Virus record (IMG/VR): IMGVR_UViG_3300045146_000098
Location: 1-49,330 of that record
Direction: 5' to 3' (one strand)
Length of the DNA: 49,330 nucleotides
Source of the DNA: a virus
In this document: in pieces, positions 2-47,904 of the stretch
Position numbering within the stretch: the stretch's first letter is position 1
How the letters are laid out: the number at the start of each line of letters is the position of its first letter
The notes under the pieces: model-generated
Database searches by the model: none
Seen by the model: only the letters and a program-made list of their open reading frames with translations
Told to the model about the DNA's origin: nothing
Made by a program: the position numbers and the translations under genes

Positions 2-961
2 GTGTATGATTTACAGCATAATAATAATACTGTATTTGACAAAGTAAAACGATATAGTATTGGTGGATATTCATGGTTAAAGGAAGCATTGGATTGGAAA
101 TTTAACGTTAAATCACCATACGAATACTTTGATAAGTGCAGCAATGATATGCGCAGACTTGCTGGTTTTGTTGTTAAGGATATGTATGGAACCACATTAG
201 AGTCGTGGCTGAATATAAGCAAGCCGCAAAAAGTGGGAATTAATAAGGTGAAAATTAATAAGAAAAAGAAAAAAGATGCAAAAATTAAAAATGAAGATGA
301 CACACGGAAAGGCGGCACGCGGAAAAATGGCGTATGGAATGGTGGCACATGGGATGGTGACACATGGGAAGGTGGCACATGGAAAGATGGTATATGGAAA
401 GGTGGCATATGGAAAGATGGCTGGTGGTATAATGGTACATGGGAATCTGGAATATGGAATAGTGGAGCATGGGGTGGTGGCACATGGAAAGGTGGCACAT
501 GGAAAAATGGCACATGGAATGATGGCACATGGGATAATGGCACATGGGATAATGGCTGGTGGTATAATGGCACATGGAAAAATGGCATATGGGAAGGTGG
601 CTGGTGGTATGATGGCATATGGAATGACGGCACATGGAATGGTGGCACATGGAATGGTGGCGCGTGGAAAGATGGCACATGGAATAATGGCATATGGAAA
701 AATGGCACATGGGAAGATGGCACATGGAATGGTGGCATATGGAAATATGGCACATGGTATAACGGCATATGGAAAGGTGGCATATGGGAATCTGGAATAT
801 GGAATAATGGAGCATGGGATGGTGGCACATGGAAAGATGGCATATGGAAAAGTGGCAGATGGAAAGGTGGAAAAATCTACGATGCAGAACTTAAAAAATA
901 TGTAATATCTAAAGTAGATCCAAAAACATATTTTGAAAACAAAAAAAAGAACAATAAATAA
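2..961 (+). CDS. GxW pentapeptide-repeat protein A (5' end probably outside window)
   Basis: The reading frame is open from the left edge; GTG at base 2 could be a start but there is no visible ribosome site, so I treat it as 5' partial. Residues 1-100 are non-repetitive (aromatic, then lysine-rich). Roughly residues 103-290 are about 37 units of a five-residue repeat, consensus G-[T/I]-W-[K/N/E/D]-[G/D/N], punctuated by GWWYN/GWWYD units. A conserved tail follows (GGKIYDAELKKYVISKVDP). The regular Gly and Trp spacing suggests a beta-solenoid or stacked-Trp rod, similar in period but not in consensus to classical A(D/N)Lxx pentapeptide proteins. The junction DAKIKN and the tail match the next two genes, while the first 90 residues do not. 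Function unknown: structural spike, surface adhesin or internal head protein are all possible. Confidence 0.75.
   Translation: MYDLQHNNNTVFDKVKRYSIGGYSWLKEALDWKFNVKSPYEYFDKCSNDMRRLAGFVVKDMYGTTLESWLNISKPQKVGINKVKINKKKKKDAKIKNEDDTRKGGTRKNGVWNGGTWDGDTWEGGTWKDGIWKGGIWKDGWWYNGTWESGIWNSGAWGGGTWKGGTWKNGTWNDGTWDNGTWDNGWWYNGTWKNGIWEGGWWYDGIWNDGTWNGGTWNGGAWKDGTWNNGIWKNGTWEDGTWNGGIWKYGTWYNGIWKGGIWESGIWNNGAWDGGTWKDGIWKSGRWKGGKIYDAELKKYVISKVDPKTYFENKKKNNK
310..872 (+). repeat. 15-bp tandem repeat coding for GxW units, copy A
   Basis: About 37 imperfect 15-bp units of the type ggTggcacAtggaaa. Each unit codes for one G-x-W-x-x pentapeptide. Stop codons are nearly absent in all six frames across it, which explains the long spurious antisense frames here. 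Confidence 0.9.
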
Positions 962-978
962 CGAATATGTTCATTATA

Positions 979-988
979 TCGTATATTG
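979..988 (+). promoter_or_regulatory. CGTATATT motif, candidate phage promoter
   Basis: TCGTATATTG lies in the intergenic space, about 60 nt before the ATG at 1046. It is one of several intergenic copies of CGTATATT (see findings). A near copy, CGTACATT, occurs at 2972-2979 before the PAS-like gene. Confidence 0.35.
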
Positions 989-1045
989 TATGTAGTGAGC
1001 ATTATAATCAATTGTAATTAGCTTAAAATAAAATAGGAAGGTAAC

Positions 1046-2023
1046 ATGAAAATTAAAAAATTATCAGAACCCAAGTCAGGTAGCTTTGACAACCTAGATC
1101 AGCAATTTATGGATCCTTACCTTATGTCTATATTAACAGAGGCAAATGTGGAAGTTAATAAAAAAGATGAAACAGGACATAATAAAGATGCAAAAATTAA
1201 AAATATGAAAGGTGGCACATGGAATGGTGGCACATGGAAAGGTGACACATGGAAAGGTGGCATATGGAAAAATGGCATATGGGAAGGTGGCATATGGGAA
1301 GGCGGCATATGGAAATATGGCACATGGAGAGGTGGTATATGGGAAAATGGCTGGTGGTGTAATGGCTGGTGGTGTAATGGTACATGGGAAAATGGCATAT
1401 GGAAATATGGCATATGGAAAGATGGCACATGGAAAGATGGCACGTGGAGAGATGGCGTATGGAATGTTGGCACATGGGAAGGTGGGAAATGGAAAGGCGG
1501 TATATGGGAAGATGGCTGGTGGTATAATGGCACATGGAATAACGGCACGTGGAGTAATGGCCGGTGGTGTAATGGCACATGGGTTGGTGGCACATGGAAA
1601 AATGGCACATGGGAAAATGGCATATGGAGAGATGGCACATGGGATAATGGCACATGGAAAAATGGCATATGGAAAGGTGGCGCATGGCATAGTGGCACAT
1701 GGAAAGGTGGCGCATGGAAAGGTGGCGCATGGAAAGGTGGCGCATGGAAAAATGGCCGGTGGTATAGTGGCATATGGGAAAGTGGCTGGTGGTTTAATGG
1801 CACATGGAATGGTGGCACATGGGAAAGTGGCATATGGGTTGGTGGCACATGGAAAAATGGCACATGGAAAAATGGCATATGGAGAGATGGCACATGGGAA
1901 GATGGCACATGGGATGGTGGCACATGGGATGGTGGAAAAATCTACGATGCAGAACTTAACAAATACGTAATATCTAAAGTAGATCCAAAAACATATTTTG
2001 AAAACAAAAAAAAAGAACTATAA
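1046..2023 (+). CDS. GxW pentapeptide-repeat protein B
   Basis: 325 aa, ATG preceded by AGGAAGG. Residues 1-54 form a non-repetitive leader shared almost exactly with protein C (MKIKKLSEPKSGSFDN, then MDPYLMSILTE|ANVEVNKKD). About 48 G-x-W-x-x units follow, including GWWCN, GRWYS and GWWFN variants, and then the conserved tail GGKIYDAELNKYVISKVDP. The leader contains LTE|A at residues 30-33 and LSE|P at 6-9, both fitting the gp21-type cleavage rule, so it may be a removable capsid-targeting leader (inference). Repeat number differs between the three paralogues, as expected from slippage or recombination. No function is assignable from sequence alone. Confidence 0.8.
   Translation: MKIKKLSEPKSGSFDNLDQQFMDPYLMSILTEANVEVNKKDETGHNKDAKIKNMKGGTWNGGTWKGDTWKGGIWKNGIWEGGIWEGGIWKYGTWRGGIWENGWWCNGWWCNGTWENGIWKYGIWKDGTWKDGTWRDGVWNVGTWEGGKWKGGIWEDGWWYNGTWNNGTWSNGRWCNGTWVGGTWKNGTWENGIWRDGTWDNGTWKNGIWKGGAWHSGTWKGGAWKGGAWKGGAWKNGRWYSGIWESGWWFNGTWNGGTWESGIWVGGTWKNGTWKNGIWRDGTWEDGTWDGGTWDGGKIYDAELNKYVISKVDPKTYFENKKKEL
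1211..1935 (+). repeat. 15-bp tandem repeat coding for GxW units, copy B
   Basis: About 48 imperfect 15-bp units, the longest of the three arrays. Local blocks such as four near-identical ggtggcgcatggaaa units around 1677-1750 look like recent slippage duplications. Confidence 0.9.
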
Positions 2024-2077
2024 ATAACGAATATGTTCACTATGTTGTACATTTATTAACTTAAAAATATAGGCAAC

Positions 2078-2953
2078 ATGAAAATTAAAAAATTATTAGA
2101 ACCCAAGTTAGGTAGCTTTGATAACATAGATCAGCAGTTTATGGATCCTTACCTTATGTCTATATTAACAGAGGCAAATGTGGAAGTTAATAAAAAAGAT
2201 GAAACAGGACATAATAAAGATGCAAAAATTAAAAATATGAAAGGTGGCACATGGAATGGTGGCACATGGGATGGCGACACATGGAAAGGTGGCATATGGA
2301 AAGGTGGTATATGGAAAGGTGGTATATGGAAAGATGGTACATGGAAAGATGGTACATGGGAAGATGGTACATGGAAAGATGGTATATGGGAAAATGGCTG
2401 GTGGTGTAATGGCTGGTGGTGTAATGGCTGGTGGGGTATTGGCACATGGGGTGGTGGCACATGGAAAGGTGGCACATGGAAAAATGGCACATGGCATGAT
2501 GGCACATGGAATAACGGCACATGGAGTAATGGCTGGTGGCATAATGGCACATGGAAAAATGGCATATGGAAAAATGGCCGGTGGTATGATGGCATATGGA
2601 AATATGGCATATGGAAATATGGCATATGGAATGGTGGCACATGGAATGGTGGCGTATGGAATGATGGCACATGGAAATATGGCACATGGTATAACGGCAC
2701 ATGGAATGGTGGCATATGGAAATATGGCACATGGAAAGGTGGAACATGGAAAGGTGGCATATGGGAATCTGGAATATGGAAAAATGGCACATGGAGAGAT
2801 GGAACATGGAAAGATGGCAAATGGAAAGGTGGAACATGGAAAGGTGGAACATGGGAAGGTGGAAAAATCTACGATGCAGAACTTAACAAATATGTAATAT
2901 CTAAAGTAGATCCAAAAACATATTTTGAAAACAAAAAAAAGAACTATAAATAA
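2078..2953 (+). CDS. GxW pentapeptide-repeat protein C
   Basis: 291 aa. The leader (MKIKKLLEPKLGSFDN, then SILTE|ANVEV) and the C-terminal tail are nearly identical to protein B. Between them lie about 41 G-x-W-x-x repeats in a different order, including GWWCN-GWWCN-GWWGI. The downstream flank (TATAAATAACGAATATG at 2945-2961) also matches the flank of copy B, so the duplicated unit is gene plus 3' flank. This is a tandem gene duplication with divergence confined to the repeat array. Function unknown. Confidence 0.8.
   Translation: MKIKKLLEPKLGSFDNIDQQFMDPYLMSILTEANVEVNKKDETGHNKDAKIKNMKGGTWNGGTWDGDTWKGGIWKGGIWKGGIWKDGTWKDGTWEDGTWKDGIWENGWWCNGWWCNGWWGIGTWGGGTWKGGTWKNGTWHDGTWNNGTWSNGWWHNGTWKNGIWKNGRWYDGIWKYGIWKYGIWNGGTWNGGVWNDGTWKYGTWYNGTWNGGIWKYGTWKGGTWKGGIWESGIWKNGTWRDGTWKDGKWKGGTWKGGTWEGGKIYDAELNKYVISKVDPKTYFENKKKNYK
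2242..2862 (+). repeat. 15-bp tandem repeat coding for GxW units, copy C
   Basis: About 41 imperfect 15-bp units. Near the 3' end the usual ggtggcaca becomes ggtggaaca in several neighbouring units, a local homogenisation not seen in copies A and B. Confidence 0.9.
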
Positions 2954-9445: not shown

Positions 9446-11500
9446 ATGCCATTATCAAATCAGACAGACTCGGTTGATAAAAACAGAAGCGTATTTGGAA
9501 AGCTGTTGTGGAGAATACAGAACTTTCTTAATAAGACTTCCGTGCGTGATGCAGAAATTGCAACACCACGTATATCAATTGAGCCACAACGAGAAATAGA
9601 TAAGCAAAGCGGCACCAAAGAGATTTTGCCGGATACCAGTTGGAATTTGGTTGATATAATTCGAGAAGGTGTTTCCTTTGAAGTCCCCAAGACAAGAGAA
9701 ATACGTTATAAACAATATCGTGAAATGGTTAAAACAAACGAGTTGCTGTCAACTGTTGTAGACATTTATGTTGATAATATTACTATATCAGACTCCGTTG
9801 ACGGTAACATTCTTCATATAGACTCAAAGAATGAAGATATTAAAAACGAGTTGGAAGGCTTGTTCTTTGACCGTATTAATATTGAAGATGCAATTAACGA
9901 TATTGTTTATGAAACAGTTCTTTTAGGCGAGTCATTCTGGGAAGTAGTGCCGACTGATTTAATGAATGGTATTAACTATATTCGCAAACTCTATTGTCCA
10001 GAAAAGATACACAGAATTGAAAAAGACGGTCGTTTGATTGCGTGGTATGTTTTAGATGATACTGCATGGACTGGGCCAACACTTAATCAAATGACAACAG
10101 CATTTGGTTCTACATATCAAGACGACTCGCGCAACACCGCAATTGATATCTCTTCATTGTCAAAATATTTCAAAGACGGCAATGTGCAGCAAGGAAGAAT
10201 ATTGGCACCGTGGCAAATTGTTCATTTTAGAATAGCAAATCGTATAGATGACTTTACCAGTTATGGACGCTCTATATTAGCACCGTGTATATATACGTGG
10301 CAATTATTGCGCCCATTGGAAGATTCGCTGGTGGTATATCGTATTATACGCGCACCAGAGCGTTATCGTTTTTATGTTGAGTGTGGTAATATGAGTTCAG
10401 AAGAGTCAATGGTATACTTGCACCGCTTAAAAGATGTCAACAACAAGGAGTCGTTTATTGATCCAGCTAGCGGCCAAATTAATAAAAAATATTTGGCCTT
10501 GGATGCTTTGTCAAATTATTATTTTCCAATGCGCAATGGTCAAAAATCAATTGAAATGGATACCATTGCTGCCGGTCAGAATTTAGGTGAGATAAACGAT
10601 ATAGAGTGGTTTGCCAAGAAACTACGTATTGCCAGTAAGGTTCCACAGGCATATTTACAAGAAGAAACTACTGACGCAAGAACACGACCATTATCGCAAC
10701 TGGATATTCAATTCGCAAAAACAATTCAACGTATTCAACGCTGTATTCTTAAAGGATTAACCAAAATTGCCATTGAACACTTATACTTGTCCGGTTATGA
10801 AGATAAGTTGAAAGAGTTTAAGTTGTCTCTTACTGTTCCTTCAGCATTGGAAAAACAAATACGTTATGAGTTGTTCGGCCAAAAATTCCAATTGGCCTCT
10901 TCAATTGCCAGTTCTAATATGTGGTCGCGTTATACCATTCAGAGAAAAATATTAGGCATGACGGCTGAAGAAGCAGAATACGAGTCGCAATTAATATTGT
11001 GGCAAGAAAACAATTTAATGCCATCAGAAGGTGCCGCTGCAAGTATGTTTATTGATAAGGACGTTAATGATATTAAGGACAGGATACAAAACATGGCAGC
11101 GCAAAAACAGGGCACTGAACCTAGTGGTATGGATTTGGGTGGCTTAGATCTCGGTGGTGGATCAGAAATGGGTGGTGGAATGGGGGCACCAGAGCCTACG
11201 GGTGGTGCGCCTGCTGGCGGTGAAGAGTTGCCAGAGTTGCCAGAAATGCCCGCTGGTGAAGCAGAACAACCGCCAATGCAGACCGCGCATCGGTTAAGAG
11301 ATACCTCTGGAACAATGCTGACAGAATGGAACAATGCACATGAGTCACTAAAGAATAGCTCATCGGTTAGTAGTAAGCGTGGTATCATTCACTTGTTTAA
11401 TGAAGGAGAAATTGATGGGCTTAGAAGGAGAGTTATACTTAGTGACAATAAAACAGTAGACGTGCTTTTTGAAAGTTTCTTAAAAAATAACTTAATTTGA
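9446..11500 (+). CDS. 20: Portal vertex protein (T4 gp20-type)
   Basis: 684 aa (T4 gp20 is 524). Portal signatures: EIRYKQYREMVKTNELLSTV, VDIYVDNITISD, INDIVYETVLLGESFWEV, the KIHRIEKDGR strand, LAPWQIVHFRI, GRSILAPCIYTWQLLRPLED, RIIRAPERYRFYV, and DIEWFAKKLRIASKVPQAYL. The extra length is mostly a Gly/Pro/Glu-rich C-terminal segment (GGLDLGGGSEMGGGMG onward) ending in a charged helix. The portal forms the dodecameric DNA gate and nucleates prohead assembly. No visible [L/I]-x-E at the N-terminus, consistent with an unprocessed portal. Confidence 0.93.
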   Translation: MPLSNQTDSVDKNRSVFGKLLWRIQNFLNKTSVRDAEIATPRISIEPQREIDKQSGTKEILPDTSWNLVDIIREGVSFEVPKTREIRYKQYREMVKTNELLSTVVDIYVDNITISDSVDGNILHIDSKNEDIKNELEGLFFDRINIEDAINDIVYETVLLGESFWEVVPTDLMNGINYIRKLYCPEKIHRIEKDGRLIAWYVLDDTAWTGPTLNQMTTAFGSTYQDDSRNTAIDISSLSKYFKDGNVQQGRILAPWQIVHFRIANRIDDFTSYGRSILAPCIYTWQLLRPLEDSLVVYRIIRAPERYRFYVECGNMSSEESMVYLHRLKDVNNKESFIDPASGQINKKYLALDALSNYYFPMRNGQKSIEMDTIAAGQNLGEINDIEWFAKKLRIASKVPQAYLQEETTDARTRPLSQLDIQFAKTIQRIQRCILKGLTKIAIEHLYLSGYEDKLKEFKLSLTVPSALEKQIRYELFGQKFQLASSIASSNMWSRYTIQRKILGMTAEEAEYESQLILWQENNLMPSEGAAASMFIDKDVNDIKDRIQNMAAQKQGTEPSGMDLGGLDLGGGSEMGGGMGAPEPTGGAPAGGEELPELPEMPAGEAEQPPMQTAHRLRDTSGTMLTEWNNAHESLKNSSSVSSKRGIIHLFNEGEIDGLRRRVILSDNKTVDVLFESFLKNNLI

Positions 11501-11575: not shown

Positions 11576-13594
11576 ATGAAGAACTATTCTTTAGAGAAGT
11601 TTAAAGAGATTTTGTCGGAAGATGTAATCAACAAGACCAACAAAATTAAAAAACAATTTGCAAAATATGCTCCAACATTAATACCATTTAGCTTTGTTCG
11701 TGACAGAGTATTTTTGTATGACATGAAAGAGTCAAAATCATATCTATGTTCTTATGTGCTTAATGAGAACTCTATTGTTCTTGATAATATTGAAAAGGTC
11801 TCTATTAATGACAATTATTTACAAGCACCATTGAAGAAAATTTTTGAAGCATTAGAAAACAATGGTGATCCTTATGAACATAAGCAAGAGTTATTGGATG
11901 CAATTCGTAATAAAGTTGCTTTTACAAAATCTTTGGAAACAGTTAAAGCAAACGTTCATGCCAGTGTAGTAGCAAACTCATTAGTGAACAGAAAGAAGAT
12001 AAGCAATAAGTTGATGGAAGCTATTAAACATAAATGGGAGAAGCTAACAAAACTGCAAAAGATGAGTATTGATAATGCAAATTCATTGCTATTTGTTCCC
12101 TATAAGCTACAAGAAGGTAAGAGTGTTGAAATATCTCTTGCTCCTGTTGCTTCTATAAACTTCAAGGATAAGTTTACATGGAATGTCCGCAAGGCGCGCA
12201 AGTCTATTGTGGAAAAGAAAGCGCAAGTGCCTCTAATTGAAAAAATACTGAACAGTGCCGTAGACAAGAAAGAAGATATTATCGAGTCGGCAAAACTATT
12301 TGTTGACAACTTGGTATTTCCATGGGTAATTACTCGTGCAGATATCACCAAGGGATTAGATAAAGTCGCCAAGAGCAAACTTATCAAGATTTCCAATGAG
12401 TCAATCGAAAAGGTGTCTGATAAGATTTACGCTATACTGGTTGAAAAAGAAAAGTCGAATATTCAAAAATTCTTAAAACATATTTATGAAGATTTGGATG
12501 GGATTAAAAGAGCGGAAGTATATAATGCTGTTTCTGTTGCGCGTAAAGTTCAGTTGCTTGAAGATGCAGGCCGTAATGTTGATGTAGATGCTGCGGCCAA
12601 GGAAGCAGAGAACAATGGTGATACAGAGGAAATTGTTGATTCAGATGTTGAAGATGCAACCAGCGAAAATTCTTCAGAGGACTATGAATATACTGCGGAT
12701 GATATTGAAGAGTATATCAGTTTATTGAAGAATATGTTAAAAGAAATTAATTTTGAGAAGTATAAAGAAATATTTGGTGAAGAAGAAGGTGAGGAAGAAG
12801 CAACAGAAGAGCCAATCGAAGAGCCGACAGAAGAAGTTCCAGAAGGCTCAGAAACAAAAGAAGGAGAAGACTTATTCGATGAAGAACCAGTTCAAGAGGC
12901 AAAGATTATCAAGAAGATCTTTGAGAACATTGATGACGAAGACGTTATCGCGTATGAAGAAAATGAGCCGATGGACACTGAAGATGATACGGAAGATATT
13001 CTTAGTGACACAGACGAAGAAGAAACAGTTGAAACTGATACGCAAAAGATTGTAGACATGATCCACGATCTTGAGGCGATGAAAGAAGAAGATCAAATTG
13101 ATGGCGAGCGTGTTTCTGAAATCGCCAAATTTGTTTATGAATATATGGAAAATCAAAAAGAAGATACAGAGACTGAAGAAAACGAAGAAGAGATGGGTGA
13201 AGAAACAACCGAAGCACCAGAGGAAACAGAAGAGGCAGAAGAACCAGCACCAGTTGCAGAGTCAAAAAAAAAATTGAATGAGTCGCCAATTCACCCCGAC
13301 GAGTCTGATGAATATGGCGCAAGGATAATTAAGATAGCAAAAGGCAGTCCTGGCGAAGACTTAGAGTTGATACTTGATGCGTTTGGATATGATGGACAAG
13401 AGATTCCACGTGATGAACATGAGATGTATGATTTAATTGTTAGTGCGGTTGAGGAGTCTGATGCGGAAACACTAAAGTCTGTGCTTGATCAATTGGAGGG
13501 TAGAGATCCTTCGGTGGCAGATACTGATGAAGTGAATGAAGAAAATGATGAAGTATTTGGCGAACTTGATGGCAAAGAAGAAAATAATTTGTAA
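11576..13594 (+). CDS. Large acidic prohead core / internal protein
   Basis: 672 aa, AGGAGA before ATG. It occupies the place of the T4 core genes 67 and 68 (between 20 and 21). The N-terminus MKNYSLEKFKEILSE|D looks like a T4 capsid-targeting and cleavage peptide. Residues 20-340 are helical and mixed-charge with a globular stretch (SVEISLAPVASINFKDKFTWN). Residues 345-565 are extremely Glu/Asp-rich low complexity. A compact C-terminal segment (IHPDESDEYGARIIKIAKGS, ELILDAFGYDGQEI) closes it. Acidic composition is typical of phage core proteins that are packaged and degraded. A named homologue is not recognised, so core protein is by position and composition. Confidence 0.6.
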   Translation: MKNYSLEKFKEILSEDVINKTNKIKKQFAKYAPTLIPFSFVRDRVFLYDMKESKSYLCSYVLNENSIVLDNIEKVSINDNYLQAPLKKIFEALENNGDPYEHKQELLDAIRNKVAFTKSLETVKANVHASVVANSLVNRKKISNKLMEAIKHKWEKLTKLQKMSIDNANSLLFVPYKLQEGKSVEISLAPVASINFKDKFTWNVRKARKSIVEKKAQVPLIEKILNSAVDKKEDIIESAKLFVDNLVFPWVITRADITKGLDKVAKSKLIKISNESIEKVSDKIYAILVEKEKSNIQKFLKHIYEDLDGIKRAEVYNAVSVARKVQLLEDAGRNVDVDAAAKEAENNGDTEEIVDSDVEDATSENSSEDYEYTADDIEEYISLLKNMLKEINFEKYKEIFGEEEGEEEATEEPIEEPTEEVPEGSETKEGEDLFDEEPVQEAKIIKKIFENIDDEDVIAYEENEPMDTEDDTEDILSDTDEEETVETDTQKIVDMIHDLEAMKEEDQIDGERVSEIAKFVYEYMENQKEDTETEENEEEMGEETTEAPEETEEAEEPAPVAESKKKLNESPIHPDESDEYGARIIKIAKGSPGEDLELILDAFGYDGQEIPRDEHEMYDLIVSAVEESDAETLKSVLDQLEGRDPSVADTDEVNEENDEVFGELDGKEENNL

Positions 13595-13610: not shown

Positions 13611-13856
13611 ATGCCAACGTTTCAAAATATCATTAATAAATCACGCGAATTGTTAGAAGACAATACTTTAATGAATAAAGACTATGCTGTGTCAGTAAAC
13701 ATGATTACTGCTAAAAAATTAAATGTTGTTGATAAAATGCTTGAATTATCAAAATTGGAAACTAAAAAATCGGCTATTAACAAAGTCTATGAGTGGAGAA
13801 ACCATTTAGATATGGAACAATTTCGATTTTTAATAAACTTCATTCATAGCATATGA
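13611..13856 (+). CDS. 81-aa protein coupled to the radical SAM gene
   Basis: Small, helical and lysine-rich. The N-terminus TFQNIINKSRELLE closely matches TFENIIKESRNLL of the unrelated protein at 27484, suggesting a shared targeting tag; L-L-E|D at 14-17 fits gp21 cleavage. Its stop overlaps the radical SAM start (ATGA), so the two are translationally coupled. It might be the substrate or partner of the enzyme, or just another internal head protein. There are no Cys residues and no leader/core pattern typical of known RiPP precursors. Confidence 0.6.
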   Translation: MPTFQNIINKSRELLEDNTLMNKDYAVSVNMITAKKLNVVDKMLELSKLETKKSAINKVYEWRNHLDMEQFRFLINFIHSI

Positions 13857-14569
13857 ATAAAAGTTTTAAAGAATTTCTTCTAAACGAATATCTGCCAAAC
13901 ACTACATCGGAACATCCGACGTCGTTACGGCTCTTATTATTCTCTGCATGTAACCGCAATTGTGAAAAGTGCTGCAACAAACAGTATGATATTGAAAATC
14001 TTCCTGTTTGCCATAAGTCAATGTATAAAAACTTTCGCAGTGTTGTGCTTACTGGTGGAGAACCTATGTTACGACCTGGTTTAGTTACGAAAGTAGCTGA
14101 TAATATTAAGGCGGCTTCTCAAAAGACAAAAGTGTATTTGTATACTGCCAAAGTTGATGATTTGCCACAAACAATGCGTGTGCTACGTCATATAGATGGT
14201 ATTACATTGACACTGCATGAACAAAAAGATGTAGAACCATTTAAAAGACTTCAAGATGTCTTGCTAGAAAAAATTCGCAGAGATAAATTACAAAGCGATA
14301 ATGTTAGTGGCTGGAGATATGCCAACGACCTTAAAAGAGTAGCTTTCAGGCTCAACGTTTTCCACGGTGTTGATATACGTGGTGTTGATACAACGGGCTG
14401 GCAGGTAAAAACGATGCGCTGGCAAGATGATTGTCCAGTGCCAAAAGATGAGATATTAATGAAATATGATATGCAAAAAAGCGACAATGCCACTGGTGCA
14501 TTTCCAGCGATTAAAGAGACTTATGGCAACTATGCTTTTAATAACTGTATTTGTGCTTGCATATATTAA
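13853..14569 (+). CDS. Radical SAM protein inside the head-gene operon
   Basis: 238 aa. The [4Fe-4S]/SAM motif C-x3-C-x2-C is at Cys33, Cys37 and Cys40 (FSACNRNCEKCC) after a beta strand LRLLLF; the GGEP motif is at 68-71 (VVLTGGEPMLRPG), followed by alternating strands and helices (KVYLYTA, DGITLTLHE). This is a compact radical SAM core, size-wise like QueE or NrdG activases, but without the NrdG or QueE signatures I know. The C-terminus has three Cys at 232, 234 and 236, which may ligate metal. The first 12 residues (MNKSFKEFLLNE|Y) resemble the T4 capsid-targeting sequence MKTYQEFIAE|A. It sits between the core protein and the prohead protease. Substrate unknown: capsid or core protein, DNA base, or a host target after injection. 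Confidence 0.85.
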   Translation: MNKSFKEFLLNEYLPNTTSEHPTSLRLLLFSACNRNCEKCCNKQYDIENLPVCHKSMYKNFRSVVLTGGEPMLRPGLVTKVADNIKAASQKTKVYLYTAKVDDLPQTMRVLRHIDGITLTLHEQKDVEPFKRLQDVLLEKIRRDKLQSDNVSGWRYANDLKRVAFRLNVFHGVDIRGVDTTGWQVKTMRWQDDCPVPKDEILMKYDMQKSDNATGAFPAIKETYGNYAFNNCICACIY

Positions 14570-14587: not shown

Positions 14588-15202
14588 ATGGAAAAAACAT
14601 TATTGGTAGAAACGAATTTGTTTACACCAGAACTGTTTACTGAGAATGTTAATGGTATAAAGTTAACGAAAGTGCGCGGCATGTATCAACAAGCCAACGT
14701 TGTTAATGCCAACAAAAGAATTTATCGTCAAAATATTTTAGAGCGAGAGATTGCCAAACTTCAGAACAAAATAGAGTCACGAAGTTTGTTCAGTCAGTTA
14801 GATCATCCTAGCACTGGTGAAATTACACTTAAGGATGTATGTGCATTGACAACCAAATTGCAAATGGATGGCGATAAAGTTGTTGGAGAAAGTGAAATCT
14901 TAACAACACCAAATGGAAATCTGCTTAAAGAATTGTTCAATTGCAGAGCAACTGTTGGTGTGTCCAGTCGTGCCATGGGAAGTGTTTTTGAAAGCACTGA
15001 AGTTCCAGGGTGTTTGGAAGTCGCACAAGATTTAGATTTGATTTGCTGGGACTTTGTGGGCGAGCCAAGTGTTGGTGGTTGCGTTATGACATTAGCAGAA
15101 GCAAAGCAAAAATATCTGCATTGCGCAAAAAGCTATGGATTAAAAGATATTGATACGAAAAAAGCATTAATTCAGTATATTAAGCAAATAACTGGAGAAT
15201 AA
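14588..15202 (+). CDS. 21: Prohead protease (T4 gp21-type serine peptidase)
   Basis: 204 aa, close to T4 gp21 (212). The catalytic His is in QLDHPSTGEI (His73) and the Ser in ATVGVSSRAMG (Ser126/127), with ESEIL between them as in the herpes-assemblin-like fold. It matures the prohead by cutting scaffold, capsid and internal proteins after [L/I]-x-E. Its own N-terminus is MEKTLLVE|T, very like the T4 gp21 start (MNEPQLLIE|T), consistent with self-processing. AAGGGA lies before ATG. It is followed directly by scaffold and capsid genes, the T4 order. Confidence 0.9.
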   Translation: MEKTLLVETNLFTPELFTENVNGIKLTKVRGMYQQANVVNANKRIYRQNILEREIAKLQNKIESRSLFSQLDHPSTGEITLKDVCALTTKLQMDGDKVVGESEILTTPNGNLLKELFNCRATVGVSSRAMGSVFESTEVPGCLEVAQDLDLICWDFVGEPSVGGCVMTLAEAKQKYLHCAKSYGLKDIDTKKALIQYIKQITGE

Positions 15203-15373: not shown

Positions 15374-16222
15374 ATGGATATCAAACAGTTTTTAACAGAA
15401 AAACTTGGAACAGAAGGCGTCAAGGAAATTGAGTCAGCGATTGTTTCCATAGTAAAGGAGAAGGATCAAAAAATTCTTACTCTTACGGAAAACGTCAAGA
15501 AAGCTGAAAACGAAAAAGGCTTTTTGATGCGCAAGATCAAAGCTCATACAAAGCTCAGTGAAGCACTTCTACAAAAGAAGCTCCAAGAACAAAAAGAGTT
15601 TATCATCGGCAAAGCAGAAGAGTATTTTGGGACAAAGCTAAAATCAAAAGAGAATATGATTGAATCACTCTGTAAGAAGTCTGAACAAAAGACAGAAACG
15701 CTTATCGAAAAAGCGAACAAGTTTTTCAACAGTATTATCGGCGATGTCAAGGGAGTAATTAAAGAGTCATACGAAAAAGAAGAGAAAGAACAGCGTGTGA
15801 TGAAACTTTTCAAGAAGGCAGTTGATTATTACAACACCAAAAAAGTTACCATATCAGACAATGTTTCAGATCTTCGTGAGAAAGTCAATAGTCTTCACGC
15901 AACAGTGCAGAAACTTACATTGGAAAACAACAACTTGAGAAAAAGCGTTCAATTTCTTAAAGAAACAAGAAATTTTAAAGATGAAGAACGTTCAATAGTT
16001 GCCAATAAGGTTAAAGATGTTGGTGATAACAAAGAATTTTCGAAGAAACTTTTGGAAGCAAAGAAGTTAGTTTTGGAAAAGAAACGCCGTCCTATTATTG
16101 AGCGCAACGACAGCAAGGAAGAAAAAGAACAACTTGTTGAAACTGTGCGCAATACTGTAAATAGTGGTGTTTCAATTGATTCAAAACTTGAAAGTAAGAT
16201 TATAGACTTAGTAGAGCTATAA
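15374..16222 (+). CDS. 22: Prohead core scaffold protein (T4 gp22-type)
   Basis: 282 aa from ATG 15374 (AAGGAG 13 nt upstream); an in-frame TTG at 15335 is unlikely. Almost fully helical and coiled-coil, Lys/Glu-rich, lying between protease and major capsid genes as in T4 (gp22, 269 aa). MDIKQFLTE|K fits the cleavage rule and parallels the T4 gp22 start (LIAE|A). It assembles the inner core that shapes the head and is later degraded by the protease. Assignment rests on position, length and composition rather than close sequence identity. Confidence 0.75.
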   Translation: MDIKQFLTEKLGTEGVKEIESAIVSIVKEKDQKILTLTENVKKAENEKGFLMRKIKAHTKLSEALLQKKLQEQKEFIIGKAEEYFGTKLKSKENMIESLCKKSEQKTETLIEKANKFFNSIIGDVKGVIKESYEKEEKEQRVMKLFKKAVDYYNTKKVTISDNVSDLREKVNSLHATVQKLTLENNNLRKSVQFLKETRNFKDEERSIVANKVKDVGDNKEFSKKLLEAKKLVLEKKRRPIIERNDSKEEKEQLVETVRNTVNSGVSIDSKLESKIIDLVEL

Positions 16223-16257: not shown

Positions 16258-18030
16258 ATGGCTACTTCAAACAGTTATGTAAACAAGAGAATTGCGGCAA
16301 TTCTCGAACAGCGTTGGGGTAATATCCTTAATGCTGGCAAGGGTATTTCAAGCCCAGCCGTTCGTTACAACACAGCGGTTCTTTTAGAGAACCAACGTCA
16401 GTATATGGAACGTAATGGTCTGTTAAACGAAGTTGGCACAACCGCAGATGTAACCGGTTTACCAACAACGATTTTCCCAATCATTCGTCGCGTGTATCCA
16501 AACATTATTGCGAATGATATCGTGGGAGTCCAACCTATGACATCGCCATCGGGTGTAGTGTTTTATATGCAATACTACTCACCAACTGGAAAGACGTTGT
16601 ATGGAGCAGACAAGACATCGGACGCAGCGGAAAACGGTGAACTTTTAACATGGAATAGTCCAGGTCGCTTTGCGCTGGACGAGTCCTATGCGTCAACCAT
16701 GACTCGCAATGAGTTGATTACCCCAGGAACTGGTGACAGTATTTCTGGTGCGGGCAGCGTTTTAACAATTGACCTGTCAGTTTCTCCAAAGAAAGTCGCA
16801 GGTAATGCAAAACTAGAGACACTGAAAGCCAGTTTAATTAACGATCTTAATAAGATTGTTTTAAGAGTATTTTATAAGAGCCAATTTTTCGGTGAACAAG
16901 TTCTATATTTGAATGACCTTATTTCCGATGGTGAGTATTATACCGCAACTAACCATGGCGGCACGAAGACCTATACAACTGGTCTTGGGTTCATTGCTGC
17001 ACTTTCTCTGTCTAATGCAGCATTTGATTTCACTGGCGTAACAGTCAGCACATCAGATGTTGAGATTTATGCTGATTATACTTATCAAGTTGGCGTAACA
17101 GGCGCAACGGGTCATCAGTATAACGCAGAAGGCGATGCAACTTTTGGTGCAAACGACAGCGGTAACTTCCCAATTCCAGAAATGGAACTGAGAATTTATC
17201 AAGGTTCAGTTAATGCAACCAAGAAAGCGTTGAAGACTGCATGGACAATCGAGAACGAACAAGACATGAAGGCGTTCCATAATCTTGATGTTGAGAAAGA
17301 GTTAGTAACAGTTATGTCGTCAGAGCTTGCAGCAGAAATTGACCGCGAAATCATTACGGACCTTCGCAACAACGTTGGTTTCACAATGGTTCACGATTGG
17401 CAAACTGCAAACATTTCTGGCGTCGGCACTGCGACTGGTGGTTCAGGCTTAGGTCTGCACTATCAAGATTTGGCAACTGCATTAGCAACGACAATTCTTG
17501 CTGGTGCCAATCAAATCTATCGCAGAACGTTCCGTGGTGCTGGAAACTGGACCATTATGAGTCCGGTGCTTTCAGCGCGTCTTGAAGCTCTAAACATCTT
17601 TAAGTATAACGGTGGTGCAGATGCAGACAAGGGTGGTTTAGGAATTGAGTCTGTTGGTACATTGAATGGCCAAATCAAGGTCATCAAAGACCCGCTGACC
17701 TATAACAATCAAATTCTGATGGGTTATAAGGGTGGATCGTTCATGGATGTAGGTTATGTCTATTGTCCATATGTGCCAGTAACACAGATTGAAACACTAA
17801 CCGATCCAGGAGATTTAACCCGCAAGAAAGCAGTTGTGACACGTTACGGCAAGTTGCTGGTAAAGCGCGGCTACAACTTCTATGCTTCAATTAGCGTAAC
17901 CAACACACCGGAAGCATTTACGAACTACTATGCTCCAGTTGCTACACAATTGAATGGTGCAACAATCGGCGGTCTGCCAGGTTACACCAGCGGTAAGAAT
18001 CAATTGACGGGAACCCATAGTTTAGTATAA
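16258..18030 (+). CDS. 23: Major capsid protein (T4 gp23-type)
   Basis: 590 aa (T4 gp23 is 521). Family hallmarks: LLENQRQYM, then VTGLPTTIFPIIRRVYPN and ANDIVGVQPMTSPSG near the N-terminus, and VVTRYGKLLVKRGYNFYASI and NTPEAFTNYYAPV near the C-terminus. LLNE|VGTTADV around residue 57 fits the gp21 cleavage site that removes the T4 gp23 prodomain (65 residues). Strong AAAGGAG site. Codon choice is visibly less AT-rich than the neighbours, as expected for the most expressed gene. A terminator-like hairpin follows. Confidence 0.95.
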   Translation: MATSNSYVNKRIAAILEQRWGNILNAGKGISSPAVRYNTAVLLENQRQYMERNGLLNEVGTTADVTGLPTTIFPIIRRVYPNIIANDIVGVQPMTSPSGVVFYMQYYSPTGKTLYGADKTSDAAENGELLTWNSPGRFALDESYASTMTRNELITPGTGDSISGAGSVLTIDLSVSPKKVAGNAKLETLKASLINDLNKIVLRVFYKSQFFGEQVLYLNDLISDGEYYTATNHGGTKTYTTGLGFIAALSLSNAAFDFTGVTVSTSDVEIYADYTYQVGVTGATGHQYNAEGDATFGANDSGNFPIPEMELRIYQGSVNATKKALKTAWTIENEQDMKAFHNLDVEKELVTVMSSELAAEIDREIITDLRNNVGFTMVHDWQTANISGVGTATGGSGLGLHYQDLATALATTILAGANQIYRRTFRGAGNWTIMSPVLSARLEALNIFKYNGGADADKGGLGIESVGTLNGQIKVIKDPLTYNNQILMGYKGGSFMDVGYVYCPYVPVTQIETLTDPGDLTRKKAVVTRYGKLLVKRGYNFYASISVTNTPEAFTNYYAPVATQLNGATIGGLPGYTSGKNQLTGTHSLV

Positions 18031-27458: not shown

Positions 27459-27483
27459 GTAAAATTAAAACATGGAGAAGAAC

Positions 27484-27906
27484 ATGAATAATCACACATT
27501 CGAGAATATAATTAAAGAGTCACGCAATTTACTTGATCGTGTATTTAATAAAACATTGTTAAGAGAAACTGGTGAATGGGAGGATGATGAAGAAGGGATC
27601 GCTCAAAAGAATTATCTTAAAAAATTAGTGGCTGAAATTGAGAAAAGAACATCAGATAGATTAAAATTAATTGATGTAAAAGGATTCGATAAATATCAAG
27701 GACCTTATGCAATTGTTAAAATTGATAGAAAAACATATCATATATGGCTTATTGCGGATAAGGACATACTGTGGATAGACCATTATGTAAAAGACAATAC
27801 TTCAAAACGTGGTTTTGAACCAGGCTTTGAGGGAACTGTTGATGATATTGTTGATATGTTAAACGATAGGAAAGATAGGGACGAAGTTTTTGGAAATAGA
27901 AAATAA
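27484..27906 (+). CDS. Small protein with tag-like N-terminus
   Basis: 140 aa from ATG 27484; the in-frame ATG at 27472 lies in the ribosome site GGAGAAG. The N-terminus TFENIIKE|SRNLL matches that of the 81-aa protein at 13611, although the rest differs: I-K-E|S and LLRE|T are possible gp21 sites. The body is alpha/beta (GPYAIVKIDRKTYHIWLIA, KDILWIDHYVKD). Predicted packaged protein (inference). Function unknown. Confidence 0.5.
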   Translation: MNNHTFENIIKESRNLLDRVFNKTLLRETGEWEDDEEGIAQKNYLKKLVAEIEKRTSDRLKLIDVKGFDKYQGPYAIVKIDRKTYHIWLIADKDILWIDHYVKDNTSKRGFEPGFEGTVDDIVDMLNDRKDRDEVFGNRK

Positions 27907-40019: not shown

Positions 40020-40508
40020 ATGAAAAACACCAATAGTTTCGTTCCGTCTGTTTACTTTCCAAAAGAAATCGAACGCCTCTGGCAACCAGATAGCATTCAA
40101 TCGTGGTTTGATGACTTGCAAAGAAGTCTGTTTCCGAGCAGCTTTTTCGGCTGGCTATCTGACTCAAAGTATCCAACAATGAACGTCAAGAATGCTAAAA
40201 ATGCATTTATTGTTGAAATGGCTGTTGCAGGCCACACCAAAGACTCAATTACTGTTCAATTAGATAATGATGGTTGGTTGGAAGTAAGAGGAAAAAGCGT
40301 AGTTAATAACACTGAAGAAATTGAATCGTATCTGTTGAATGAAATGAAGTTGAGTTCATTTTCAAAGAGGGTTAAAATTAGCAATATCAATTTGATTGAT
40401 GTTGATAATATTACATCTACATGTGAGAACGGCATATTGTCTATAACGTTGCCGAAGAAGGAAATTAAAGAAGAGTTGCCGAAAATCAAGACAATTGCCG
40501 TTCAGTAA
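40020..40508 (+). CDS. hsp20: Small heat-shock protein, Hsp20 / alpha-crystallin family
   Basis: 162 aa, AAGGAG before ATG. Alpha-crystallin domain: MNVKNAKNAFIVEMAVAGHT, ITVQLDNDGWLEVRGKS, LLNEMKLSSFSKRVKISN, and the hallmark CENGILSITLPKKE (G-x-L); a C-terminal I-x-I-type tail (IKTIAVQ) follows. It prevents aggregation of unfolded proteins. T4-like cyanophages carry Hsp20 genes in the late region, so the location is not unusual. A probable role is aiding virion-protein folding late in infection. Confidence 0.9.
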   Translation: MKNTNSFVPSVYFPKEIERLWQPDSIQSWFDDLQRSLFPSSFFGWLSDSKYPTMNVKNAKNAFIVEMAVAGHTKDSITVQLDNDGWLEVRGKSVVNNTEEIESYLLNEMKLSSFSKRVKISNINLIDVDNITSTCENGILSITLPKKEIKEELPKIKTIAVQ

Positions 40509-42919: not shown

Positions 42920-43522
42920 CTACCGCACAGCTATTATATTGGGGCTATCAAAGAGATCACTCACCACCTTGCGCTCTGCCATGCAAATCGTGTCGCTGTG
43001 GCCCGCTCCGTGGCATACAAGCCGAATCTCCTCAATCACCCATCCTCGCTTCTTGCCCATCCCCATGCTGTCCCATCCGAACGACAGACACACGCCACCC
43101 ACCGGCACAAGCCGATGGATAATGTCGCGTTCCGCCTTCCAACTGTGCGTCCTCCATCCGTCCTGTTGTGTCATTTTCCTCCCGATCCCATCGTATAGTT
43201 CCTTGACCTGGCGCGGGCTGTACGGTGGATCAAACAGAATCAGGTCGGCGGATACACCTTCCGACTCCATCTTCCTCAGGAAGTCGAGCGCGTCCAAGTG
43301 GAACTGCGCGGCGGTCTCCGGGTTCAAGTCGTTTGTCCATGTTGCCAGCCTCTTGTTCCGTGCAAACGGGTCAATGGACACCTTCGCGCCGCGCAACCAT
43401 CGCCTCACAAATTCGCCAATCGGCGGACAGTCGAACGTGTCGCCAGTAGGCATCCCCCATTCGCGGGAGAATCGGAAAGCACCAACAAAAGCGTCGAGGT
43501 TACGGCCATTCGCTGCGCTCAT
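42920..43522 (-). CDS. DNA methyltransferase (DPPY type), GC-rich
   Basis: 200 aa. Motif IV DPPY at residues 98-101 (ADLILFDPPYSPRQVKELYD) and the AdoMet-side motif KVSIDPFARNKRLATWTNDL then NPETAAQFHLDALDFL. This combination is known from stand-alone phage amino-methyltransferases that modify A (N6) or C (N4). Length suits an orphan phage enzyme without a restriction partner, and no nuclease lies beside it. Base composition is visibly much richer in GC than the phage around it, indicating recent transfer. Likely protects phage DNA from host restriction. Confidence 0.8.
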   Translation of the reverse strand: MSAANGRNLDAFVGAFRFSREWGMPTGDTFDCPPIGEFVRRWLRGAKVSIDPFARNKRLATWTNDLNPETAAQFHLDALDFLRKMESEGVSADLILFDPPYSPRQVKELYDGIGRKMTQQDGWRTHSWKAERDIIHRLVPVGGVCLSFGWDSMGMGKKRGWVIEEIRLVCHGAGHSDTICMAERKVVSDLFDSPNIIAVR

Positions 43523-43531
43523 GTCCGAACC

Positions 43532-43867
43532 TCACAAAGCGGGGCGTTCCAAGCGAGTCGGCACCAGACAAAACGCATCATAGGGATTTGACGAATCCGG
43601 TAACAGACCAAGCGTGACAAAATCGGCAAAGCCAGCCAGAAAACGCCCGACGCCGACGACACTGCCCTTTGCCATGCCGGTAAACACGCCAACCACGCTA
43701 TAGGTTTGGCAATCCTTAAAAATACCCACTGGCGGTTCGGCAAATGCACTTGCCATATTAATAGTTCCACGTGACATGCCCTTGAGCATAAGAGCACCAG
43801 TTTGGCTATCTGCCATTACTGAAACAGCAAGCACGGTTACTGCAACCATCATAAACAACTTCATCAT
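43532..43867 (-). CDS. Small secreted protein resembling TIGR04073 (exosortase-associated)
   Basis: 111 aa, AAGGAG before the double ATG. Signal peptide MKLFMMVAVTVLAVSVMA. The mature part KGMSRGTINMASAFAEPPVG, then VVGVFTGMAKGSVVGVGRFL and AGFADFVTLGL, matches my memory of the TIGR04073 pattern (RGxxNxxx..E.P, Gly-spaced amphipathic helix, R..G..D..T) found in exosortase-bearing Lentisphaerae/Verrucomicrobia. The 3' two-thirds share the high GC of the methyltransferase. Probably host-derived cargo. Match is from memory and moderate. Confidence 0.45.
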   Translation of the reverse strand: MMKLFMMVAVTVLAVSVMADSQTGALMLKGMSRGTINMASAFAEPPVGIFKDCQTYSVVGVFTGMAKGSVVGVGRFLAGFADFVTLGLLPDSSNPYDAFCLVPTRLERPAL

Positions 43868-46114: not shown

Positions 46115-46274
46115 TCAGTCGGGTGTCATCGTAATATTTTTCTTACAAGATTGACAATGTAATATTTCCACTTTATAATATTCTTTGTTAAGGACTATAT
46201 CTTTAATTTCTATTACTTTCTCAACAAAACAATAATTGCCTTTATTCTGTCCAGTAAGAATGGCAATTTTTTTT
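46115..46274 (-). pseudogene. Out-of-frame C-terminal extension of the solenoid protein
   Basis: Past the T8 run at 46267-46274, the other minus frame reads KIAILTGQNKGNYCFVEKVI, then EIKDIVLNKEYYKVEILHCQ and SCKKNITMTPD, before stopping at 46115. This looks like genuine protein with Cys pairs (zinc-ribbon-like). One base fewer in the homopolymer would join it to the gene at 46242-47039. It is either a recent frameshift, an assembly indel or a slippage site. Confidence 0.45.
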
Positions 46275-47039
46275 GAAACAATATACTTCTGTTACTACTG
46301 GTGCATATTCTCCGTGCTTATAAGATTTTCCGCCCGAACGCTTAATTTGGGGGATGCTTAAGCCATATGCATATATTTCTCCATCTTTTTGCTCAATCTT
46401 TGGGGCACTTGAGTCACATGCGCGTATAACACCGCCTAATTGTTCAATCACTGGGACACTTGAGTTACAAGTGTATACATATCCTCCTAATTGTTTAATC
46501 TTTGGGGCACTTGAACCATATGTATATATACTGCCACTTGATTGCATAATATTCGGTTCGCTTAAACCATATGTATATACAACACCGTGTAATTTATTGA
46601 TTACAGGAGAACTTAAACCATATACGCATATTTTACCACTTGATTGTTTAATTGTTGGAGAGCCACTAAGGACAATCAATATTTGTCCATGCTCACAAGT
46701 ATGATCCCCTTCTGTCACGAATCTGGTTTTAGCCCACATCGGTAAAGCGGCTCTGCATTGTTCTTCCGCCCACTTCGCATTGTACCAATCAGGCAAAACC
46801 TTTTGATCTACTTTATATTTCCATTCTGAAAATGGTAGTGAATAATCACAACTATCACCATTATCACCATTATAGCCATTATTACCATTATCGGCGGGAC
46901 TAATCTCCACTCGAACAAAATCGGGGGTTAAAATCTTATCATTAAGATTATTGCTTTTAATTATCCATTCATGGCTGTCACAAATCGGATCGAACAGAAC
47001 ATCATACTTCGTCACTATCATTGACGCTGGGCTACACAT
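46242..47039 (-). CDS. 17-residue beta-solenoid repeat protein A
   Basis: 265 aa, GGAGAA before ATG. N-terminal domain of about 120 residues (MCSPASMIVTKYDVLFDPIC, FVRVEISPAD, YSLPFSEWKYKVDQ, LPDWYNAKWAEEQCRAALPM, TRFVTEGDHTCEHGQILIVL). Then seven 17-residue units of the form S-x-P-x-I-x-Q-x-x-G-x-I-y-x-Y-x-S, a classic right-handed beta-solenoid rhythm. I recall similar SPASxIVT proteins with short solenoid repeats in phages and gut bacteria; function there is unknown to me. Paralogue of the gene at 47095. It may continue out of frame to 46115. Confidence 0.65.
   Translation of the reverse strand: MCSPASMIVTKYDVLFDPICDSHEWIIKSNNLNDKILTPDFVRVEISPADNGNNGYNGDNGDSCDYSLPFSEWKYKVDQKVLPDWYNAKWAEEQCRAALPMWAKTRFVTEGDHTCEHGQILIVLSGSPTIKQSSGKICVYGLSSPVINKLHGVVYTYGLSEPNIMQSSGSIYTYGSSAPKIKQLGGYVYTCNSSVPVIEQLGGVIRACDSSAPKIEQKDGEIYAYGLSIPQIKRSGGKSYKHGEYAPVVTEVYCFKKNCHSYWTE
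46282..46650 (-). repeat. 51-bp repeats coding for 17-residue solenoid units (copy A)
   Basis: Seven degenerate 51-bp units; conserved codons specify (S/A)-x-P-x-I-x-Q and G-x-I-Y-x-Y-x-S. Confidence 0.75.
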
Positions 47040-47094
47040 ATTTTTTCTCCATATAAATATTCATTATACTCACTGTTATGAAATTTTTGGCGTA

Positions 47095-47904
47095 TTAGAG
47101 CCACGTGTGCATATACATTGATTCATATGCATAATATGATTCATTTAATTGAATTACAGGAGTACTTGATTTGTATATTTTTATCTTACCACTTAATTGT
47201 TTGATTTGGGGAGCACTTGAGTCATATGTGCATATACTCCCATTTGATTGTTCAACAACTGGAGTGTTTAATGCGTACATATTTGATTGTTGGATCACAG
47301 GGGCACTTAATTCATATGTATATATAACACCATTTAATTGTGTAATCTTTGGGGCACTTGAGTCATATGTACATATACTACCACTTGATTGTTCAATTAC
47401 AGGAGTGCTTAAACCATGTGTGTATATAAATCCATCTGACTGGTTAATCACAGGGGAACTTGAGTCATATATTTCTATAGCACCATTTAACTGTTGAATC
47501 TCTGGGGTGCTAGAACCATATGTAAATATACAGCCACTTGATTGTTTAATTGTTGGAGAGCCACTAAGGACAATCAATATTTGTCCATGGGCACAAGTAT
47601 GATCCCCTTCTGTCACGAATCTAGTTTTAGCCCATTCCGGTAAAGTGCCTCTACATTGTTTTTCCGCCCACGTAGTATTGTACCAATCAGGCAAAAAATC
47701 CTGGTCTACTTTATATTTCCATTCTGAAAACGGCAAAGAATAATTACGTTTACACCCTTCAGGAACAATCTCCACTCGAACAAAGTCTGGGAACGGCACT
47801 TTATCATTAAGTTTATTTTTCTCGATTATTTTTTCATGACTATCATAAATTGGATCGAATAAAACATCGTTCTTAGTTACTATCATTGACGCTGGCAGGC
47901 ACAT
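47095..47904 (-). CDS. 17-residue beta-solenoid repeat protein B
   Basis: 269 aa, same GGAGAAAAAAT leader and start (MCLPASMIVTKNDVLFDPIY) as copy A, with the N-terminal domain highly conserved between them (PFSEWKYKVDQ, LPDWYN, WAKTRFVTEGDHTC, HGQILIVLSGSPTIKQSSG). About eight solenoid units follow, one internally shortened (VIQQSNMYALNTPVVEQ). The final unit decays into YYAYESMYMHTWL. Near-consensus promoters lie upstream. Likely expressed before the late genes; function unknown. Confidence 0.65.
   Translation of the reverse strand: MCLPASMIVTKNDVLFDPIYDSHEKIIEKNKLNDKVPFPDFVRVEIVPEGCKRNYSLPFSEWKYKVDQDFLPDWYNTTWAEKQCRGTLPEWAKTRFVTEGDHTCAHGQILIVLSGSPTIKQSSGCIFTYGSSTPEIQQLNGAIEIYDSSSPVINQSDGFIYTHGLSTPVIEQSSGSICTYDSSAPKITQLNGVIYTYELSAPVIQQSNMYALNTPVVEQSNGSICTYDSSAPQIKQLSGKIKIYKSSTPVIQLNESYYAYESMYMHTWL
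47130..47530 (-). repeat. 51-bp repeats coding for 17-residue solenoid units (copy B)
   Basis: About eight units, one with a deletion of several codons. Several units in the two paralogues are more alike within a gene than between genes, suggesting homogenisation. Confidence 0.75.

What the first reader, a model, noticed from the sequence alone, without database searches (positions are those of the whole stretch)
13611..14569. Radical SAM enzyme embedded in the capsid-maturation operon
A 238-aa radical SAM protein (Cys33, Cys37, Cys40; GGEP at 68-71; three extra Cys at the C-terminus) lies between the acidic core protein and the prohead protease, coupled by ATGA to an 81-aa protein. Its N-terminus MNKSFKEFLLNE resembles a capsid-targeting peptide. 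If packaged, it would be an oxygen-sensitive enzyme carried in the virion, acting on capsid or core proteins, on DNA, or in the host after injection. No deazaguanine-pathway or anaerobic reductase partner is visible in this window.
Basis: partly seen in the sequence, partly recalled or inferred. Interest (0 to 1): 0.8.

Follow-up and report, generated by a model that had tools for sequence, protein, structure and literature searches.

The report
Radical SAM enzyme with capsid-entry tag
A large T4-like phage has placed a small phage-specific radical SAM enzyme in its head-building operon with an N-terminal tag like the one T4 uses to load proteins into its head, which suggests that this normally oxygen-sensitive enzyme is carried in the virus particle and injected into the host.

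Summary
At 13853-14569 a 238-aa protein with CxxxCxxC, TGGEP and an ATGA overlap with an 81-aa ORF lies between an acidic core protein and a gp21-type protease, in a T4-type head module. It belongs to a small (~165 aa) radical SAM family, PHROG 31524, found here only in phages (crAss001, LoVEphage, about 20 IMG/VR contigs, a 735-kb phage). It is not NrdG, QueE or HxsC: scores are far below cut-offs, and no NrdD or QueC was found in the records searched. In almost all relatives the gene sits outside the head operon and the protein begins directly at the core. Three members carry an extra N-terminus resembling the T4 capsid-targeting sequence (MKTYQEFIAE): the window (MNKSFKEFLLNE), the 735-kb phage (MKTKFNEFLFE) and its relative L111 (MVINFKNYIFE). 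The 735-kb phage puts the motif on about 50 unrelated proteins. A motif model trained on those ranks this protein first of 62 in the window if one inserted residue is allowed (second without). Best reading: a packaged, protease-processed, injected enzyme. Its substrate is unknown; nearest solved relatives are the peptide epimerase EpeE and viperin-like enzymes. Packaging itself is not shown.

The parts
13853..14569 (+). radical SAM enzyme, 238 aa, PHROG 31524 family
13853..13888 (+). putative capsid-targeting sequence MNKSFKEFLLNE, predicted cut after Glu12 (L-x-E)
   Evidence: T4 CTS and cleavage rule from PMC9026906
13949..13975 (+). cluster-binding motif C33-x3-C37-x2-C40-C41
14051..14065 (+). 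TGGEP (SAM-binding motif), residues 67-71
14429..14443 (+). DCPVP motif, residues 193-197, with conserved Cys194
13611..13856 (+). 81-aa protein of unknown function, translationally coupled (ATGA); no family match at threshold
14588..15202 (+). prohead protease, Peptidase_S77 (gp21 type), proposed to remove the tag
11576..13594 (+). acidic core protein, 672 aa, starts MKNYSLEKFKEILSE
15374..16222 (+). coiled core/scaffold-type protein, starts MDIKQFLTE
16258..18030 (+). major capsid protein Gp23; predicted propeptide cut after ...GLLNE58, the same LLNE as in the enzyme's tag (nt 16420-16431)
9446..11500 (+). T4-type portal protein

Best explanation
The gene encodes a small phage-specific radical SAM enzyme that has acquired a T4-type capsid-targeting sequence. 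The first 12 residues (MNKSFKEFLLNE) dock the enzyme onto the prohead core. The gp21-type protease encoded next door cuts after Glu12 in the L-x-E context. The mature enzyme stays in the head with the DNA and is ejected at infection. In the host cytoplasm its [4Fe-4S] cluster (Cys33/37/40) is reduced by host electron carriers and cleaves SAM to a 5'-deoxyadenosyl radical that modifies an early host or phage target. Shown: family, motifs, fold class, tag resemblance, operon position. Inferred: packaging, cleavage, ejection. Unknown: substrate. A conserved Cys194 could serve as hydrogen-atom donor, as a cysteine does in EpeE and in spore photoproduct lyase, but this is only a lead.
For: Family and core. 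Tag: the 22-residue extension is absent from all 19 IMG/VR relatives in A3 as aligned, which start at the core. The 735-kb phage LR756501 (MKTKFNEFLFE) and L111 (MVINFKNYIFE) have a tag at the same place. Between those two, tag identity is about 4 of 15 against 75% overall, yet the motif positions F5, F/Y8, L/I9 and E11 are kept. LR756501 carries the motif on about 50 unrelated proteins, including PPK2, DeoC and a methyltransferase, and has a gp21-like protease and Gp23. A motif model trained on those proteins, with the rSAM left out, scores T4 IPII/IPIII 14.3 and the window protein 14.3: rank 1 of 62 window ORFs, 0 of 1514 internal segments as high, 0.06% of shuffled N-termini. In T4 IPIII targeting depends on residues 4 and 7 and processing on 8 and 10, and gp21 cuts after L/I-x-E (PMC9026906); F5/F8 and L10-N11-E12 fit. 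The phage's own capsid protein has LLNE at its predicted cut.
Against: No virion proteomics exists for this phage. A general excess of [LIVMF]2-x-E in window N-termini was not significant (11 of 44, p 0.15). Two relatives in T4-head phages (L060, L071) lack the tag on the enzyme, although a neighbouring phosphoribosyltransferase there carries a similar one. The substrate is unknown.
Confidence: 0.6

Rival explanations
1. An ordinary cytoplasmic phage enzyme that landed in the late head operon; the N-terminal helix is incidental and the protein is not packaged.
For: Most relatives lack a tag and lie in early or replication regions. Syntenic head modules lack the gene, so it is an insertion.
Against: The added N-terminus matches the T4 tag pattern closely and occurs on three members, in phages with a T4-type head (window, LR756501) or a close relative of one (L111).
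Confidence: 0.22
2. The enzyme enters the prohead and works there, modifying capsid, core or packaged DNA during maturation.
For: Gene position beside core and protease genes and the tag. Nearest solved relative EpeE modifies peptides.
Against: Relatives occur in phages without T4-type heads and away from head genes; related head modules do without it. SAM supply and reduction inside a prohead are hard to picture (inference).
Confidence: 0.1
3. A NrdG, QueE or HxsC enzyme serving a known pathway.
For: Weak profile similarity: phrog_626 NrdG 3.7e-4; HxsC 7.1e-5, NrdG 1.3e-3. GenBank calls crAss001 gp56 'HxsC-like'.
Against: Scores are 13-22 bits against cut-offs of 126-268. No NrdD or QueC in the records searched, including complete crAss001 and LoVEphage. 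No conserved peptide neighbour.
Confidence: 0.04
4. A decaying gene with a read-through C-terminus and no function.
For: The C-terminal 30 residues are unique and disordered.
Against: All catalytic and family-conserved residues are intact; no stops or frameshifts.
Confidence: 0.04

Closest known systems
T4 internal proteins IPI, IPII, IPIII and Alt (capsid-targeting sequence cargo)
   Same: N-terminal 10-12 residue tag with paired aromatics and L/I-x-E cut site, with a gp21-type protease; Alt is also an enzyme injected into the host
   Different: Cargo here is a radical SAM iron-sulfur enzyme; gene lies inside the head operon; packaging not shown
PHROG 31524 ('HxsC-like' crAss001 gp56, LoVEphage protein)
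   Same: Same enzyme family: CxxxCxxCCN, TGGEP, DGITLTLH, RLNVF, W..DCPLP
   Different: Those have no tag and lie in early or replication regions
EpeE/YydG radical SAM peptide epimerase (PDB 8ai1-8ai6)
   Same: Best solved relative by sequence profile (7e-5) and fold; shares the CxxxCxxCC motif
   Different: Larger enzyme (about 320 residues) with two clusters and its own peptide substrate; TM-score only 0.44; no peptide partner here
Viperin-like enzymes
   Same: Second-best fold match (E about 1e-4)
   Different: About 280-residue core, CTP-bound structures; profile match weak (E about 0.003-0.014)
NrdG / QueE
   Same: Small radical SAM size; Fer4_12 domain class
   Different: Far below family cut-offs; no partner genes found

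Membership tests
Radical SAM superfamily | CxxxCxxC cluster motif and GGE(P) SAM motif in a partial TIM barrel | tested here: met
   Motifs conserved in the family; AlphaFold model matches radical SAM structures; Pfam Radical_SAM over cut-off for the 735-kb-phage member but only 12.7 bits for the window protein
Radical SAM superfamily | [4Fe-4S]-dependent SAM cleavage | not testable with these tools
   needs biochemistry
PHROG 31524 | profile match over the core | tested here: met
   8.1e-24 over residues 27-209; all 20 members of A3 match
HxsC (TIGR03977) | score above curated cut-off | tested here: not met
   21.8 bits against 267.9
NrdG | score above cut-off and NrdD partner | tested here: not met
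   18.7 against 126.1 bits; no NrdD in 23 records; the window record may be a fragment
QueE | QueE profile and QueC/QueD partners | tested here: not met
   13.2 against 260.1 bits; no QueC in 23 records
T4-type capsid-targeting-sequence cargo | N-terminal tag matching the T4 CTS | tested here: met
   14.3 bits, equal to T4 IPII/IPIII, with one inserted residue allowed; 7.4 without
T4-type capsid-targeting-sequence cargo | gp21-type protease and gp23 in the same genome | tested here: met
T4-type capsid-targeting-sequence cargo | present, cleaved, inside virions | not testable with these tools
   needs mass spectrometry

The most novel reading that the evidence does not exclude
T4-type phages with large genomes deliver a radical SAM enzyme from the capsid: the same phage-specific enzyme family received a capsid-targeting tag in at least two lineages (the window; LR756501 and L111), and in L111 it is also fused to a methyltransferase-like domain, as part of a wider injected set of enzymes.
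Probability: 0.5. Interest if true: 0.78.

Novelty: new variant of a known kind. Interest (0 to 1): 0.6.

Why it matters
T4 internal proteins show that phages inject proteins along with DNA, and the cargo is described as a diverse set of host-takeover and anti-defence proteins. A radical SAM enzyme as cargo would add oxygen-sensitive iron-sulfur chemistry to that set and implies that the cluster is rebuilt or re-reduced in the host. The tag motif also gives a sequence-only way to list candidate injected proteins in huge phages: about 50 in one 735-kb genome, including PPK2, DeoC and a methyltransferase. It also identifies a phage radical SAM family, present in crAssphage, whose public name 'HxsC-like' is not supported.

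Tried and rejected
Peptide-maturase pairing with the 81-aa protein: no conserved neighbour of the enzyme across loci, and the 81-aa protein has no PHROG match and only sub-threshold Pfam matches. RNA-repair link: an RNA ligase gene lies within about 5 kb of the enzyme in 4 of 22 records (W01, G001, G006, G018) and in L111, but the other 18 records have none, so it is kept only as a lead. Close relatives of the window phage by protease or capsid protein in IMG/VR: none. L012 proved to be QueE by its sequence and neighbours and was dropped. Excess of L-x-E-type sites in window N-termini: not significant. Shared N-terminus of the 81-aa protein and the 27472-27906 protein: score 41 against a null maximum of 40, marginal. 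Methyltransferase homologs L114/L115 have weak tag scores (2.9, 3.2) and were not counted as tagged.

Full report
What is there. ORF 13853-14569 encodes a 238-aa protein that overlaps the 81-aa ORF 13611-13856 by ATGA and sits between an acidic 672-aa protein and a Peptidase_S77 protease, in the order terminase, portal, acidic core protein, 81 aa, enzyme, protease, core protein, Gp23. The record is a 49,330-base IMG/VR virus record, possibly a fragment. Pfam gives Fer4_12 just over its cut-off (23.8 against 22 bits) and Radical_SAM below cut-off. PHROG 31524 matches at 8.1e-24.

Which enzyme family. tblastn against phages found crAss001 gp56, LoVEphage, Phocaeicola phage PV4-TP1 and the 735-kb phage LR756501. 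Pattern scans gave 20 IMG/VR contigs; L012 from an earlier scan turned out to be QueE and was dropped. The alignment of 20 sequences defines a core of about 165 residues: LRLL, CxxxCxxCCN, TGGEP, Y-T/S, DG-x-T-x-T-x-H, RLN-V/I-F, W-x-V-K, W-x-x-D-C-P-x-P-x-x-E. All 20 match PHROG 31524. The structure model is good over the core (mean pLDDT above 90 for residues 51-140) and low at residues 1-20 and 214-238. Solved relatives by profile and by fold are EpeE/YydG (7e-5; Foldseek 8.5e-6, TM 0.44) and viperin-like enzymes. HxsC, NrdG and QueE models score far under their cut-offs, and NrdD and QueC are absent from all records searched, including the complete crAss001 and LoVEphage genomes.

Where relatives live. 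In crAss001 the gene lies between a small hypothetical gene and a HicA-like gene, near flavin-dependent thymidylate synthase and DNA polymerase. In LoVEphage and PV4-TP1 it is next to a Holliday-junction resolvase and a cytosine methyltransferase. In LR756501 it is next to an RNA ligase and EF-G. A DNA-polymerase family is the only neighbour shared by five loci. Head modules syntenic with the window (LR756511, Mel-JY01, immuto) have no such enzyme between core protein and protease. The enzyme therefore looks like an insertion into the head operon, not a head-maturation component.

The tag. In A3 the window protein alone has 22 extra residues at its N-terminus. No alternative ATG, GTG or TTG start exists before the core. 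Its first 12 residues, MNKSFKEFLLNE, resemble the T4 CTS of IPII/IPIII, MKTYQEFIAE (T4 sequences read). T4 work places targeting at residues 4 and 7 and processing at 8 and 10, with gp21 cutting after L/I-x-E (PMC9026906). The window's capsid protein has GLLNE|VGTT at the position corresponding to the propeptide ends of related capsid proteins (the cut itself is inferred). The 735-kb phage begins its version with MKTKFNEFLFE and has about 50 unrelated proteins with the same motif, among them PPK2, DeoC and a methyltransferase. It has a gp21-like protease adjacent to Gp23. A relative, L111, begins MVINFKNYIFE: the residues differ but the motif positions are kept.

Test of the tag. A nine-column motif model was trained on 735-kb-phage N-termini with the enzyme left out. 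It scores T4 IPII and IPIII at 14.3 and L111 at 15.7. The window enzyme scores 14.3, rank 1 of 62, with 0 of 1514 internal segments as high, when one inserted residue is allowed at a cost of 3 bits. I allowed the insertion after seeing the sequence; the null was scored by the same rule. In 319 N-termini from loci of untagged relatives none reached 14.

An unexpected fusion. In L111 the enzyme is joined in frame to a C-terminal domain with weak but consistent methyltransferase matches (Methyltransf_25, 1.1e-5). Stand-alone homologs of that domain occur in other huge phages. Whether the two activities act on one substrate is unknown. An RNA ligase gene lies just upstream in L111 and close to the enzyme in four other records, which keeps an RNA target possible.

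Mechanism. Shown: enzyme family, intact motifs, fold class, tag resemblance, matching protease and capsid genes. Inferred: docking to the core, cleavage after Glu12, retention with DNA, ejection. Unknown: substrate. The conserved Cys194 could be a hydrogen donor as proposed for Cys223 of EpeE and a cysteine of spore photoproduct lyase (PMC8326336), but I could not align the two positions.

What is known. T4 internal proteins are described as a diverse set sharing only the CTS (PMC3012670). No paper in the library holds both 'capsid targeting' and 'radical SAM'. Radical SAM genes in phages are not new: Campylobacter phages CP220 and CPt10 have 11 and 12 (PMC2853527). The new element is the tag on such an enzyme and the recurrence of that pairing.

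Noticed in passing
L017-L053 (LR756501, 735 kb), e.g. record positions 62965-64050, 65144-66169, 130798-131622: About 50 proteins share an N-terminal [FY]xx[FY][ILVM]xE motif resembling the T4 capsid-targeting sequence; cargo includes PPK2, DeoC and a methyltransferase.
   Followed up: partly
L111:6001-7341: The radical SAM enzyme is fused in frame to a methyltransferase-like domain whose stand-alone homologs occur in other huge phages.
   Followed up: partly
L016:13685-17394 (LR756508): Five consecutive genes downstream of the capsid protein begin with short tags such as MRLKEILLE and MKLKGILKE; several look alike and might be injected ADP-ribosyltransferase-type proteins (by eye only).
   Followed up: no
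window 2-2953: Three consecutive paralogous genes made largely of GTWxxG/GIWxxG-type short repeats.
   Followed up: no
window 46242-47904: Two paralogous minus-strand genes with repeated SSGxIYTYGxSxP-type units.
   Followed up: no
window 43532-43867: Minus-strand 111-aa protein matches exosortase-associated TIGR04073 (6.5e-7, below cut-off), a possible host clue, in a stretch that also holds a possible DNA methyltransferase (42920-43522).
   Followed up: partly
window 40020-40508: Phage-encoded Hsp20 small heat-shock protein (4.8e-15).
   Followed up: partly
L007:8627-9436 and L071:6131-7009: Phosphoribosyltransferase-domain protein with a capsid-tag-like start (MTTFKEFLLDE; MKTNFKLFLEE) a few hundred bases upstream of an untagged radical SAM gene.
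   Followed up: partly
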